IMG/VR virus record: IMGVR_UViG_3300028393_000083
Span: 1 to 56,134 of that record
From: a virus
Reading direction: 5' to 3' (one strand)
Length of the DNA stretch: 56,134 nt
The notes below the pieces were generated by a model that was not told the DNA's origin, made no database searches, and saw only the letters and a list, made by a program, of their open reading frames with translations. The translations under genes and the position numbers were made by a program. This document shows positions 2,323-54,983 of the stretch, piece after piece; the first letter of the stretch is position 1, and every line of letters starts with the position of its first letter.

Positions 2323-2805
2323 TTATTTTAGATTGTAGATATTTCCTATATATGCATCAAACTCTATATGATGCTTTCTAAAAGAAAGCGTTAACTTCTT
2401 TTCTAAATGTTCAGCTTCATATTCCCATGGATATTCAGATGTATAAACTATATCTTTTTCAAATCTTTCTTTTTTCCATTTAGTATGTTTTGAAAAAAAT
2501 ACAAGTTCTCTTTTATCAAATTGTTTTACATGAACCATTTCATGAGCAAGAGTTCTAATAGTTTCATACGGAGACATATCAGCATTCAACTGAATTATAT
2601 ATTTAGAAGGATTGATTTTATTACTATAGTTATAACATTCACCATAAGCTTTTTCCTTCTTAACTAGATTATTCACAATCTTAACTATAATATCAATATT
2701 GTGTTTGTTTGGTAACAACTGATTCAAAAAATAAACAGATGCCCTAGATAAACACTTCTTGAGAAGTTTATCATTAGAGCATCCGTATATTTTGAGATTA
2801 ATCAT
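2323..2805 (-). CDS. SprT-like zinc metalloprotease
   Basis: The 160-aa protein carries TLAHEMVHVKQF near residue 88. This is the HExxH zinc site (HEMVH) with the glutamate base, preceded by a YIIQLNADM strand as in SprT/Spartan-type metallopeptidases. A later acidic WEYEAE segment could supply the third zinc ligand. The length fits a single catalytic domain. The gene lies between the split ATPase and the nuclease-like gene, with gaps of 1-2 nt on both sides. Substrate unknown; SprT domains in other systems cleave DNA-bound proteins. Confidence 0.7.
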   Translation of the reverse strand: MINLKIYGCSNDKLLKKCLSRASVYFLNQLLPNKHNIDIIVKIVNNLVKKEKAYGECYNYSNKINPSKYIIQLNADMSPYETIRTLAHEMVHVKQFDKRELVFFSKHTKWKKERFEKDIVYTSEYPWEYEAEHLEKKLTLSFRKHHIEFDAYIGNIYNLK

Positions 2806-2807
2806 TA

Positions 2808-3881
2808 TTATGCATACGCCATGATTAGCCGAGTAAGATCATCATCTTTAATAGAAACTCCGGCAGCGACAGCACCACCGGCAATAGCAAGACCTCGGGA
2901 TAATTTGCGAAGATTGGCGGATTGTTTAGAGTTGCCTTTACGAAGTAATTCAACTACATGTTTACGTTGAGCTAATGTTAATTGTAGACCATCTTCTAAC
3001 TCCATATCTCCTACAATCTTATCCATGAAGTCATAAATCTCTTCTACTGTTGGATCAATGTCAATGATAAATGCTCTTGTACGAAGAGCTTTATCTGGAT
3101 CTAATTTATCAAGAGACATATTAGAAATAAATATAATCTTTCCAGTAAATTCAAAATATCTAGGAATCATCCCAGCATCAAGAATTTCATCATCTGTCAT
3201 TGTATCTGGATCAACGACGTTCTTACCCATCTTATTCCATACGAGCTTGCGTTTTTTCTTAGTATCTGTTGCAGCTTTTAGAATATTACGTCCTTCTGTA
3301 TCCCCAAAGACATCATCTGAATCATCGAATAGAATAATTTTATCCTTATATCTGAATAACAGTGAATATAGACCAGCAGCCGAAGCAGAACCTGTATTTT
3401 TGAAATACCCCTTACCATCCTTAAGCCCCATGGAATGTAGGACTTTTTCAGTTGTGTGAGTTTTACCGGTATTGTGATGACAAATACCATTTGCTGTAAA
3501 ATATAGATGATCGGCTGAATCAATTTCAACATCATAATAATCCGAAACAGAATCTGAAATTATTATATTAATAATTTTCACATAAGATCCATCTTGCGTC
3601 ATCACTTCATCCCCAATTACTAAATCTCTTACTTGTAAACTTCCTTTACTTGTAGTTAATAGATGTACATCCGAACATTTAATAATTCGATCATCTTCAA
3701 ATTTAACCAATGTATCTTTACCAGGTTTAATAACAAATGATACAATCTTTGAACTTCCAGAAGGAGTATCGATTTTTATATTTAAGGAAGAAATATCATA
3801 AAATTTGAAATGTTCTAGATAATCGCCATACAATTTTTCTGTAAGGTCTTTAATATCTTGTATTGTGTTAAGTTTTTTCAT
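2808..3881 (-). CDS. Split AAA ATPase, C-terminal half fused to a C-intein
   Basis: Residues 1-137 read as the large C-terminal part of an intein: a TxxH-like block near residue 73 (DVHLLTTSKG), then DLVIGDEV, then block F (DYYDVEIDSADHLYF) and block G ending NGICHHN. The next residues, TGKTHTTEK, complete a Walker A motif whose first half (GVGG) ends the N-extein encoded at 4026-4910. The C-extein (220 aa) has Walker B KIILFDDSDDVF, a sensor-1 like IIFISNMS and an arginine pair RTR. Splicing in trans would give a 501-aa AAA ATPase with intact GVGGTGKT. The gene has its own T4-type late promoter. Neither half alone has a functional P-loop. Confidence 0.9.
   Translation of the reverse strand: MKKLNTIQDIKDLTEKLYGDYLEHFKFYDISSLNIKIDTPSGSSKIVSFVIKPGKDTLVKFEDDRIIKCSDVHLLTTSKGSLQVRDLVIGDEVMTQDGSYVKIINIIISDSVSDYYDVEIDSADHLYFTANGICHHNTGKTHTTEKVLHSMGLKDGKGYFKNTGSASAAGLYSLLFRYKDKIILFDDSDDVFGDTEGRNILKAATDTKKKRKLVWNKMGKNVVDPDTMTDDEILDAGMIPRYFEFTGKIIFISNMSLDKLDPDKALRTRAFIIDIDPTVEEIYDFMDKIVGDMELEDGLQLTLAQRKHVVELLRKGNSKQSANLRKLSRGLAIAGGAVAAGVSIKDDDLTRLIMAYA
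3471..3881 (-). other. C-intein (137 aa) of a naturally split intein
   Basis: This stretch carries almost the whole Hint fold, including block B (near residue 73), block F and the terminal HHN. The penultimate histidine and terminal asparagine are the expected residues for asparagine cyclisation, and the +1 extein nucleophile is threonine. No homing-endonuclease block is present. Confidence 0.88.
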
Positions 3882-3911
3882 TGATTAAATTTGATTTGGT
3901 CTCTATGATGT

Positions 3912-3919
3912 TATTTATA
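3912..3919 (-). promoter_or_regulatory. T4-type late promoter for the C-half gene
   Basis: A perfect TATAAATA on the minus strand ends 30 nt upstream of the ATG at 3881. It lies in the 144-nt spacer (3882-4025) separating the two halves of the split ATPase. Nothing else is recognisable in that spacer; no endonuclease gene is present. Confidence 0.7.
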
Positions 3920-4025
3920 TATTCCTAACAATCCTTCATTACATCTTCTAATAAAGAATTTTAGTACTTCAACCCATCCGAATATAACAATAAAAGAAAC
4001 AAATAATATAAAGATATTTAATACT

Positions 4026-4910
4026 TTATTCCATAGTAGCATTAATTTCCGTATCTGCTGATAAACAACCCCCAACACCAGATACAAATATTGCGTTAGA
4101 CGCCCCTGATATTGTTAATTTAAGGAGATGTTCTAAGTCTGCCAACTGTTGTTCAAACGTAAGTTTATCAATCTTAGTTTCAAGAGTATCAATATCTTGA
4201 ATATCTTCATAAGTTTCTTTTGAAGAACCTTTAGTAATCTTACCTGTAACGATACCAATAGAATCTGTAATATCATCAAGATCCTTCATAATATTTTGAA
4301 GTTGTTTTGGTGTGCCTGTCCATTCATAATCAACACCATTCTTAACGATTTCCTTTGAATATGTTGTAAGAAGATAATCAAAAATCTTAATTCCAGGTGA
4401 TGCATATTTAGCTCTTACATCCCCTTTGCTTGCGCCTGGACCAGAAATCATATCGAGTATACCAGAAAGAATATCTTTTGGTGTATCTCCTCTAGCTTCA
4501 TTCAGAGGAATTCCATCAGGCATTGTATTAATTTCTCCAGTATAACCGTTAGCTGATATAATATCTGCAATAACAGGAAGTGTCTTTATAAGCGATACTT
4601 CTTTATCAAACTCTATATGATATGGTCTGGCACTTTCTCCATTCCAGAAATCAACAGATTCTAAACCACTTAATCCGATAGAATTGGATAACGACCAATT
4701 GAATCGGATAGATTTACTATCTTTAGTACTATAAAACCGAATACCTCGACCCTTACCAGACTCGTTTTGATATACTTCGACCCCGGCAGATTTAAAGAAT
4801 AATAATCCGGTTTTCTTTTGAAGATATTTTGTAATGATCAGACCAGCCTTCTCAGCTGAACTTGAAGTCATTGCTTCGACAATACATGGTTTGAAACTTA
4901 AATTGCTCAT
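4026..4910 (-). CDS. Split AAA ATPase, N-terminal half ending in a 13-residue N-intein
   Basis: This 294-aa protein ends ...AIFVSGVGG followed by CLSADTEINATME and a stop. CLSADTEI is the canonical intein block A with the Cys1 nucleophile; GVGG is the first half of a P-loop. The 281-residue N-extein has no other motif I can name, but contains MISGPGA, an acidic helical stretch, and a helix (DLEHLLKLTI) leading into the P-loop strand. It is the upstream partner of the gene at 2808-3881. A TATAAATA late promoter sits 8 nt before the ATG, so both halves should appear late. Confidence 0.9.
   Translation of the reverse strand: MSNLSFKPCIVEAMTSSSAEKAGLIITKYLQKKTGLLFFKSAGVEVYQNESGKGRGIRFYSTKDSKSIRFNWSLSNSIGLSGLESVDFWNGESARPYHIEFDKEVSLIKTLPVIADIISANGYTGEINTMPDGIPLNEARGDTPKDILSGILDMISGPGASKGDVRAKYASPGIKIFDYLLTTYSKEIVKNGVDYEWTGTPKQLQNIMKDLDDITDSIGIVTGKITKGSSKETYEDIQDIDTLETKIDKLTFEQQLADLEHLLKLTISGASNAIFVSGVGGCLSADTEINATME
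4029..4067 (-). other. N-intein fragment, 13 residues
   Basis: The codons for CLSADTEINATME form the extreme C-terminus of the upstream ATPase half. Thirteen residues is far shorter than in the usual naturally split inteins (about 100 residues) and at or below the short atypical class (roughly 15-25 residues, from memory). Confidence 0.85.
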
Positions 4911-4918
4911 ATATGTTA

Positions 4919-4926
4919 TATTTATA
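4919..4926 (-). promoter_or_regulatory. T4-type late promoter for the ATPase N-half
   Basis: TATAAATA on the minus strand lies 8 nt before the ATG at 4910. If transcription begins the usual 6-7 nt downstream, the mRNA would be nearly leaderless. Confidence 0.7.
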
Positions 4927-53082: not shown

Positions 53083-54980
53083 TATGGTAGATCTATTTCA
53101 AAAATTTTATAATCAAATTGTTCTCTATTGTATATATCAATTCTTTCTTTGGCATGTTTCATAGTGAAGTTTTTCTTTGATTTCCATGAGAAGTTATCGG
53201 ATATATCATAAAGAGTTGTTGATTTACCGTTATCGGATTTTCTAAGACCTCTTCCAATTGATTGAAGAACCCTTACTTGAGATTTAGTAGGAGCTGCAAA
53301 AATAATAGTATGAATATTTTTTAAATTCGTTCCCGTTGCAAAAACCACAGATGCCAATATGATACAATTACTTTCTTTATCAGCAATAGCTCTAATTTCT
53401 TCTCTTGTCTTTGCATTGACTTCTCCGGATACATAAAAGATTTTTCTATCGGGATAATTTATTGAAGCTATATCACATACCTTTTTATATAGAGGTTTCC
53501 CGTGATCTTCAATCCGATTGAATAAAACTAATGTATTACCCTTTTGATCTATGGCTAACTTAGTGATAAAATCATTTCTTCCAACATGACTTATAATAGC
53601 ATTGATTTCATCTTGATATTCCATTTTTGATACAATCTTTTTAAGTTCATTATTATGATTGAGAACAAGACATCTAATTTTCAATTGAGCAATTGTATCA
53701 GAATCCATTAACTCTTTTGTTGTAATAACTCTATTGACTGGACCAAAGTTACCAACAAGAACTAGTTCATTACATTTAGCTCCATCAAGAGTACCTGTTG
53801 TGCCAATTCTATATTGAGCGTTGGTTAGATTATTCATGATAGTATTAAGACTTTTTGCGACTGCGAGATGTACCTCATCACAAATTGCCATACCAAATTT
53901 CAAGAATTGATTTCGGGGTTGTGTATGGATGGATTGCCACGTTGAAATTAAAATTCTTTGTGAAACATCTAATTTCTCTTGACCTGAATAAATCAAATGA
54001 ATTTCAGATTCAACATCAAAATTGTCATCACTTGAACTATAATCTTCAAAGTCTAACTTCATTTGATGACAAAGTGAAACTGATGGCACAATAATTAGTA
54101 TTTTTTCATTACAATTATCTAGATACCATCGAATCAAAGTATAGATAATTAGACTTTTACCAGAATTATGATGAAGTATTCCATTTTGATAATAGCATTC
54201 TTTATCATAATCTAAACTAAAATCATACCAATCTTGAGGAGGTACTGGAATAATTTTAGATATTCTTGAATTTTTATGATCTAAAATATCGTGTACTTTT
54301 AAAGATTCTAGTGTAACAAATTTACCTTCTTTTTGAACCTGATGATAATCTGATCCTATAGTTTCAGTACCATCGCTAAACTCAATCTTTCTTCCCGGAC
54401 CATATTTTTTGTATGCTCCTATAACAGATTTCCATCCATCTGGAGTCGGAAATTTTATAATAATTCCATTGTTATATTCATTATACAATTCCTTAAACTT
54501 ATAATAATAAGGAGATTTATTGATTTCTGCAATGATTTCTGTATTACCATCAAGACAAGCCGTAGGACTTAAAGTTAAACTTCGACCTTCTTGAATCGCA
54601 TGAATGAATGCATCTAATTGGTAATCACGCATTTCCACAGGTTCTCCTCGGACTGTAAGTTTTAAAGACTTAATGTAATCTATAAGAGATTGTCTAGTTA
54701 TGACAGGTTTATTACTAACTTCTTTATCAATATCAAATGTATAATTTCTAACTTCACAAAACTTAATAAGTTCGAAAAGTAGTCCATACGGAAGTAATCT
54801 TGTTTGAGCTGAAAAGATAGAAATTTTTCCTGACCATAATTTAGCTTTAAACTTTGGATGAAATCTAGCTCCCGGTACTTCAAATGTAAAGTATTCATTA
54901 ATTTCCTGAATAATGCTAGAATCATCTGAGTTAATTCTCAAATGAACTTCATTAACTTTTGTAATTTGAATATCTTTCAT
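53082..54980 (-). CDS. uvsW: UvsW-type helicase containing an in-frame mini-intein
   Basis: The 632-aa precursor has a 131-residue intein at residues 142-272; removing it gives 501 aa (T4 UvsW 503). The exteins join as SPTA + SGKS, restoring Walker A. Other superfamily 2 motifs: ILISTWQSIHT (Ia/b), AICDEVHLA (DEVH box), TGTLDG (motif III-like), TGTNLKNIHTIIFA (V) and QSIGRGLRKSD (VI). UvsW unwinds branched recombination intermediates and R-loops. It follows uvsY, as expected for T4-type recombination genes. Confidence 0.92.
   Translation of the reverse strand: MKDIQITKVNEVHLRINSDDSSIIQEINEYFTFEVPGARFHPKFKAKLWSGKISIFSAQTRLLPYGLLFELIKFCEVRNYTFDIDKEVSNKPVITRQSLIDYIKSLKLTVRGEPVEMRDYQLDAFIHAIQEGRSLTLSPTACLDGNTEIIAEINKSPYYYKFKELYNEYNNGIIIKFPTPDGWKSVIGAYKKYGPGRKIEFSDGTETIGSDYHQVQKEGKFVTLESLKVHDILDHKNSRISKIIPVPPQDWYDFSLDYDKECYYQNGILHHNSGKSLIIYTLIRWYLDNCNEKILIIVPSVSLCHQMKLDFEDYSSSDDNFDVESEIHLIYSGQEKLDVSQRILISTWQSIHTQPRNQFLKFGMAICDEVHLAVAKSLNTIMNNLTNAQYRIGTTGTLDGAKCNELVLVGNFGPVNRVITTKELMDSDTIAQLKIRCLVLNHNNELKKIVSKMEYQDEINAIISHVGRNDFITKLAIDQKGNTLVLFNRIEDHGKPLYKKVCDIASINYPDRKIFYVSGEVNAKTREEIRAIADKESNCIILASVVFATGTNLKNIHTIIFAAPTKSQVRVLQSIGRGLRKSDNGKSTTLYDISDNFSWKSKKNFTMKHAKERIDIYNREQFDYKIFEIDLP
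54165..54557 (-). other. Mini-intein in the UvsW P-loop, 131 aa
   Basis: It begins CLDGNTEIIAEI (block A), has GSDYHQVQKEGKFVTLESL (block B) and ends WYDFSLDYDKECYYQNGILH then HN (blocks F and G). The +1 residue is Ser. No LAGLIDADG or HNH endonuclease domain is present, so it is a minimal splicing element. Confidence 0.9.
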
Positions 54981-54983
54981 ATA

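What the first reader, a model, noticed from the sequence alone, without database searches (positions are those of the whole stretch)
2808..4910. Split intein with a 13-residue N-fragment breaking an AAA ATPase P-loop into two genes
The upstream protein ends GVGG + CLSADTEINATME; the downstream one carries a 137-aa C-intein ending HHN followed by TGKT. Trans-splicing would rebuild GVGGTGKT. Naturally split inteins normally break after about 100 residues; an atypical class with short N-fragments of about 15-25 residues is known. Thirteen would be at or below the short end. The two halves are separated by only 144 nt with no endonuclease, and each has a TATAAATA late promoter.
Basis: partly seen in the sequence, partly recalled or inferred. 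Interest (0 to 1): 0.92.

Follow-up and report, generated by a model that had tools for sequence, protein, structure and literature searches.

The report
Phage split intein with 13-residue N-half
A phage gene for an ATPase is broken in two inside its ATP-binding loop, and the pieces carry the two parts of a self-splicing protein element (an intein) that should weld the enzyme back together; the front part is only 13 amino acids, two shorter than the shortest natural one described in the papers I could read.

Summary
The finding is real. On the minus strand, a 294-aa ORF ends GVGG|CLSADTEINATME* and a 357-aa ORF starts with a 137-aa Hint domain ending HHN|TGKT. That domain is predicted confidently as an intein fold (pLDDT 88; Foldseek hits gp41-1 and VidaL) and its family profile hits VidaL at 2.9e-16. 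A relative (L004) has the same break with another 13-residue N-fragment. Thirty-six distinct relatives have one uninterrupted gene; all have Val where both split genes have Thr, a residue splicing can use. The intein is under purifying selection (dN/dS about 0.12). It is a class-1, S1-split ("atypical") intein like VidaL (16 aa) and PolB16 (15 aa, published record). In L004 a putative endonuclease ORF sits between the halves ("fractured gene"); the window's 144-nt spacer is the frameshifted relic of its 3' end, so "no endonuclease" means lost. The extein is the T4 NrdC.10 family (function unknown). The N-half's TATAAATA is supported: all 31 distinct upstream regions of uninterrupted relatives carry one. 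The C-half's lies inside former endonuclease codons. Splicing itself was not tested. The window also holds an unsplit intein in UvsW. Verdict: a new member of a known kind with a record-short N-fragment.

The parts
4068..4910 (-). N-extein: first 281 aa of the NrdC.10-family ATPase, ending ...FVSGVGG in the middle of the Walker A motif
   Evidence: ORF and translation; about 46-51% identical to the N-part of continuous homologues
4029..4067 (-). N-intein, 13 residues, CLSADTEINATME (Cys1 codon 4065-4067); stop codon 4026-4028
   Evidence: Direct reading; L004 has CLSADTAIVATQD* at the same place; aligns with block A of unsplit relatives
3882..4025 (-). 144-nt spacer; 3883-3985 is the frameshifted relic of the 3' end of an endonuclease ORF that is intact in L004 (3761-5011)
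   Evidence: tblastn of the L004 ORF against the spacer, E=3e-8 and 0.003, collinear in two frames with an in-frame stop; DNA alignment
3471..3881 (-). C-intein, 137 residues, Hint domain ending HHN (Asn137 codon 3471-3473; block B His73 codon 3663-3665)
   Evidence: AF2 pLDDT 88.3; Foldseek to gp41-1 and VidaL; profile to VidaL 2.9e-16; alignment A5
2811..3470 (-). C-extein, 220 aa of the ATPase, starting TGKTHTTE (Thr+1 codon 3468-3470); stop codon 2808-2810
   Evidence: phrog_1250 E=5.5e-23; 65-77% identical to continuous homologues over the matched stretch; +1 is Val in 36 of 36 distinct uninterrupted homologues
4919..4926 (-). TATAAATA, probable late promoter of the N-half
   Evidence: Count in window is at chance, but the motif lies upstream of the start codon in 31 of 31 distinct uninterrupted homologues and in L004
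3912..3919 (-). TATAAATA upstream of the C-half; promoter role uncertain because it lies in sequence that encodes E-Y-I-N of the endonuclease in L004

Best explanation
This is a naturally split, class-1 intein of the 'atypical' (S1-split, VidaL-like) type, inserted in the Walker A motif of a T4 NrdC.10-family ATPase. The two genes make two precursors, neither with a complete P-loop. The 13-residue N-intein at the end of the first precursor docks into the 137-residue Hint domain at the start of the second. Cys1 forms the thioester, Thr+1 accepts the N-extein, Asn137 cyclises, and the product is a continuous 501-aa ATPase with the P-loop GVGGTGKT. The arrangement most likely came from a 'fractured gene' with a free-standing endonuclease between the halves (still intact in L004). 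In the window's lineage the endonuclease has decayed to a 144-nt relic while the splicing parts are intact. Shown here: gene structure, Hint fold, conserved residues, empty sites, relic and selection. Inferred: that splicing happens, its chemistry, and that it is needed for ATPase function.
For: The C-intein is predicted as a Hint domain, and its top Foldseek hits are inteins (gp41-1 3.7e-7, VidaL 6.3e-6). The profile hits VidaL at 2.9e-16 and gp41-1 at 3.5e-11. His73, His136 and Asn137 are invariant across 13 relatives. The joined 150-aa sequence aligns end to end with unsplit relatives, including the UvsW intein in the same window (Z 14.5-17). Thirty-six distinct uninterrupted homologues all have Val where both split genes have Thr. 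L004 has a 13-aa N-fragment too, with an endonuclease-like ORF between the halves. The spacer is that ORF's relic. Between window and L004, dN/dS is 0.119/0.96 for the C-intein and 0.146/1.26 for the C-extein. Related P-loop split inteins in DnaB have N-fragments of 15-18 aa.
Against: No splicing was tested. Single-sequence Pfam and NCBIfam hits are all below curated cut-offs. The block B Thr of the usual TxxH is replaced (CSDVH). Only two distinct sequence types (window and L004) carry this intein.
Confidence: 0.88

Rival explanations
1. Decaying element: the intein and its ATPase are being lost after the endonuclease died, and the halves no longer splice.
For: The endonuclease is already a relic; the N-extein diverges faster than the rest (57% identity, dN/dS about 0.28).
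Against: The splicing residues and both open reading frames are intact in the window, in three near-identical contigs and in L004; the C-intein is as strongly constrained as its extein; the +1 Thr is kept.
Confidence: 0.08
2. The halves do not ligate. The Hint domain only cleaves (as in bacterial intein-like or Hedgehog-type domains), or the two proteins work as separate subunits that assemble without splicing.
For: No ligation data. Some Hint families cleave without ligating (general knowledge).
Against: The break lies inside the Walker A motif, so neither part alone has a P-loop; the C-terminal HN and the +1 Thr, needed for ligation, are present; all uninterrupted relatives are one polypeptide.
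Confidence: 0.03
3. Assembly or sequencing artefact that split a normal gene.
For: Metagenomic contig.
Against: Same sequence in three other contigs, one from another sample; a divergent relative has the same split with a whole ORF in the gap.
Confidence: 0.01

Closest known systems
VidaL intein (PDB 6VGV; atypically split, IntN 16 aa)
   Same: Best PDB match of the family profile (2.9e-16) and a strong fold match; S1 split after beta-2 (PMC13014065); the C-extein of the solved chain reads SGK, which fits the same Walker A register
   Different: IntN 16 aa against 13; +1 Ser against Thr; different sequence (about 23% identity in the fold match)
PolB16 OarG intein (atypically split, IntN 15 aa, published record; PMC10189870)
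   Same: S1 split with a very short N-fragment
   Different: Cysteine-less, in a PolB-type DNA polymerase; 15 aa against 13. The window intein uses Cys1
AceL-TerL / GOS-TerL / Cat inteins (atypical, S2 split; IntN 25-30 aa where stated in PMC13014065)
   Same: Short N-fragment class; engineered CatC is the best single-sequence PDB hit (E=4e-5)
   Different: Split after the first helix (S2), so the N-fragment is about twice as long
Fractured genes with a free-standing endonuclease between split-intein halves (Dassa 2009, cited in PMC6892783)
   Same: L004 has the full arrangement; the window has its relic; cultured Vibrio phage vB_VmeM-32 shows it in gp41 and uvsX
   Different: In the window the endonuclease gene has decayed

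Membership tests
class 1 intein | Cys or Ser at intein position 1 with a block A motif | tested here: met
   CLSADTEI; L004 CLSADTAI
class 1 intein | Block B His (usually TxxH) | tested here: inconclusive
   His73 invariant in 13 relatives, but the Thr position reads Cys (CSDVH)
class 1 intein | C-terminal His-Asn and a +1 Cys, Ser or Thr | tested here: met
   HHN|T in both split types; HN invariant in A5
class 1 intein | Hint fold | tested here: met
   pLDDT 88.3; top Foldseek PDB matches are inteins
class 1 intein | Extein homologues without the insertion | tested here: met
   36 distinct uninterrupted homologues at the exact site
class 1 intein | Splicing activity | not testable with these tools
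   Needs expression and mass spectrometry
atypically split (S1) intein | Natural break after strand beta-2 giving a very short IntN | tested here: met
   Break falls after TEINAT-ME in the alignment to unsplit relatives; IntC begins before the first helix (residues 7-18)
atypically split (S1) intein | IntN within the published 15-37 aa range (descriptive, not defining) | tested here: not met
   13 aa in both split types; range from PMC13014065
fractured gene arrangement | Endonuclease ORF between the split halves | tested here: inconclusive
   Present in L004 (417-aa ORF; T5orf172 similarity only E=0.071); in the window only a relic
NrdC.10 family ATPase (phrog_1250) | Sequence similarity and Walker A motif | tested here: met
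   E=5.5e-23 for the C-half and 4e-26 for a continuous homologue; annotated nrdC.10 in Aeromonas phage 44RR2.8t

The most novel reading that the evidence does not exclude
A working natural split intein with a 13-residue N-fragment, the shortest known in nature, in a new host protein (NrdC.10-family ATPase), kept under selection after its endonuclease decayed. This would suggest that the split state can be maintained without homing.
Probability: 0.7. Interest if true: 0.55.

Novelty: new member of a known kind. Interest (0 to 1): 0.47.

Why it matters
Very short natural N-inteins are wanted for protein semisynthesis, because a 13-mer is easy to make chemically. The locus also gives a readable evolutionary series at one site: empty gene, split intein with endonuclease ORF (L004), and split intein with dead endonuclease (window), alongside unsplit relatives in neighbouring P-loop proteins. 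That makes it a good case for asking how inteins become split and why they stay split once homing is lost.

Tried and rejected
Pfam, NCBIfam and PHROGs on single sequences gave only sub-threshold Hint hits. A whole C-half alignment with DnaB inteins was misaligned (A3) and was replaced by the intein-only alignment A5. The AF2 model of the continuous ATPase was poor (pLDDT 59.8) and its PDB fold search was uninformative, so the ATPase's function stays open. The phage records gave no match to the N-half, the genome collection gave no relative, and N-half scans of IMG/VR found only the split types themselves. Assembly error was rejected. The TATAAATA count was tested and is at chance; the claim was kept for the N-half only because of positional conservation. 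The endonuclease ORF was not formally assigned: Pfam T5orf172 at E=0.071 is only a lead. Dassa 2009 and Burton 2020 (VidaL) are not held in the library, so the 15-aa record rests on PMC10189870 and PMC13014065; two more literature searches listed no title or abstract reporting a shorter natural one.

Full report
Observation. Both ORFs are on the minus strand. The N-half (4910..4026) encodes 294 aa ending FVSGVGG CLSADTEINATME; the C-half (3881..2808) encodes 357 aa whose first 137 residues end FTANGICHHN, followed by TGKTHTTE. In its frame the C-half has a stop codon two codons before the ATG, so there is no longer form. The region is identical in two other IMG/VR contigs and differs by one base in a third from another sample.

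Is it an intein? The single-sequence HMM evidence is weak: Hint_2 E=0.0046 and intein_Cterm E=0.14, both below cut-off. The family evidence is strong. A profile of 13 related C-inteins hits VidaL at 2.9e-16, gp41-1 at 3.5e-11 and the Spl DnaX mini-intein at 1.7e-7. AlphaFold2 on that alignment gives pLDDT 88.3, and the best Foldseek matches in the PDB are inteins, most with TM-scores of 0.6-0.75. Block B His73 and the terminal His136-Asn137 are invariant. The reconstructed 150-aa sequence aligns end to end with unsplit relatives.

Is the site right? Relatives in IMG/VR encode one continuous protein, mostly 512-535 aa, reading for example SGKGG-VGKTHTTE where the window has SGVGG-[intein]-TGKTHTTE. 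All 36 distinct uninterrupted sequences have Val at +1; the two interrupted types have Thr, a residue class-1 splicing can use. T4-like NrdC.10 relatives from cultured phages have Ile or Val there (GAPGIGKT, GAAGVGKT).

How short is the N-fragment? It is thirteen residues in the window and thirteen in L004 (CLSADTAIVATQD*), although the two N-exteins are only 57% identical. In the related DnaB/gp41 P-loop family the N-fragments found here are 15, 16, 17 or 18 residues, and unsplit versions also exist. The literature held gives 15-37 aa for natural atypical splits and names PolB16 OarG (15 aa) as the shortest characterised (PMC10189870; PMC13014065). Artificial 11-residue N-fragments work (M86, PMC13014065), so 13 is mechanistically plausible. 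The break falls after strand beta-2, the S1 site used by VidaL and PolB16.

Where did the endonuclease go? In L004 a 417-aa ORF fills the gap between the halves. Its C-terminus resembles the T5orf172 domain only weakly (E=0.071). Its middle part is shared with an ORF lying between the split gp41 halves of cultured Vibrio phage vB_VmeM-32 and with one between the DnaB halves of L174. The window's 144-nt spacer aligns with the 3' end of this ORF (tblastn E=3e-8 and 0.003, collinear, in two frames, with an in-frame stop; DNA alignment). The window therefore carries a fractured gene whose endonuclease has decayed.

Is it maintained? Between window and L004 the C-intein shows dN 0.119 and dS 0.96, the C-extein 0.146 and 1.26, and the N-extein 0.361 and 1.31. 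The intein is as constrained as its C-extein. This covers the whole time since the two lineages split, so it does not by itself date selection to after the endonuclease was lost.

Promoters. TATAAATA occurs at the chance rate in the window (11 against 11.65), so the count means nothing. Its position does for the N-half: all 31 distinct upstream regions of uninterrupted homologues carry it within the 60 bases before the start codon, as does L004. These relatives are not independent, but the motif is kept while the surrounding bases vary. The C-half copy lies in sequence that encodes E-Y-I-N of the endonuclease ORF in L004, so its promoter role is open.

What the ATPase does is unknown. It belongs to phrog_1250/NrdC.10. 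A fold model was too poor to help.

Wider context. The same window has a second, unsplit intein of 131 aa in the Walker A motif of a UvsW helicase (54165-54557, minus; LSPTA|CLDGNTE...HHN|SGKS). UvsW, NrdC.10, vB_VmeM-32 gp41 and apparently VidaL (C-extein SGK in the solved chain) share the same insertion register, Gxxx^xGK; the DnaB group inserts two residues earlier. That inteins favour P-loop ATPases is established (PMC5050341).

Verdict. The finding and its interpretation are supported. It is a new member of a known kind (VidaL-like, S1-split, class-1 phage inteins), with the shortest natural N-fragment I could find described, a host protein I found no intein report for, and a clear record of endonuclease loss. 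Splicing itself remains to be shown.

Noticed in passing
window 54165-54557 (-), inside UvsW ORF 53085-54983: Unsplit 131-aa intein in the Walker A motif of a UvsW helicase (LSPTA|CLDGNTE...HHN|SGKS). It scores as close to the split intein as any relative tested except L004, and matches in cultured phages (H81-H88) are shorter by about its length.
   Followed up: partly
L007 (1-256 and 1058 on), L045, L021, L050, L172, L174, L182 and others: A large family of P-loop split inteins in the neighbouring DnaB/gp41 helicase, with IntN 15-18 aa. Where checked, an endonuclease-like ORF lies in the gap: HNH-like by eye and on the opposite strand in most, sense-strand and of the L004 family in L174. Unsplit versions occur in L015, L070 and L175.
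   Followed up: partly
L168 (Vibrio phage vB_VmeM-32, KU160494.1 63140-71565): A cultured phage with two adjacent fractured genes: uvsX (SegG-like ORF between the halves) and gp41 (ORF related to the L004 endonuclease between the halves). The two gp41 halves have no annotated gene in the record.
   Followed up: partly
L011-L013 (2520-3596), L045-L047 (2543-3619): Relatives of the L004 endonuclease ORF lie as free-standing ORFs just upstream of an intact, intein-free NrdC.10 gene.
   Followed up: no
31 distinct upstream regions of uninterrupted NrdC.10 homologues: TATAAATA precedes every NrdC.10 start codon, often twice, suggesting that this unknown ATPase is a late gene.
   Followed up: partly
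window 2323-2805 (-): 160-aa metallopeptidase-like protein (Peptidase_M78 E=5e-5); related ORFs follow the ATPase in L004 and L007 as well.
   Followed up: no
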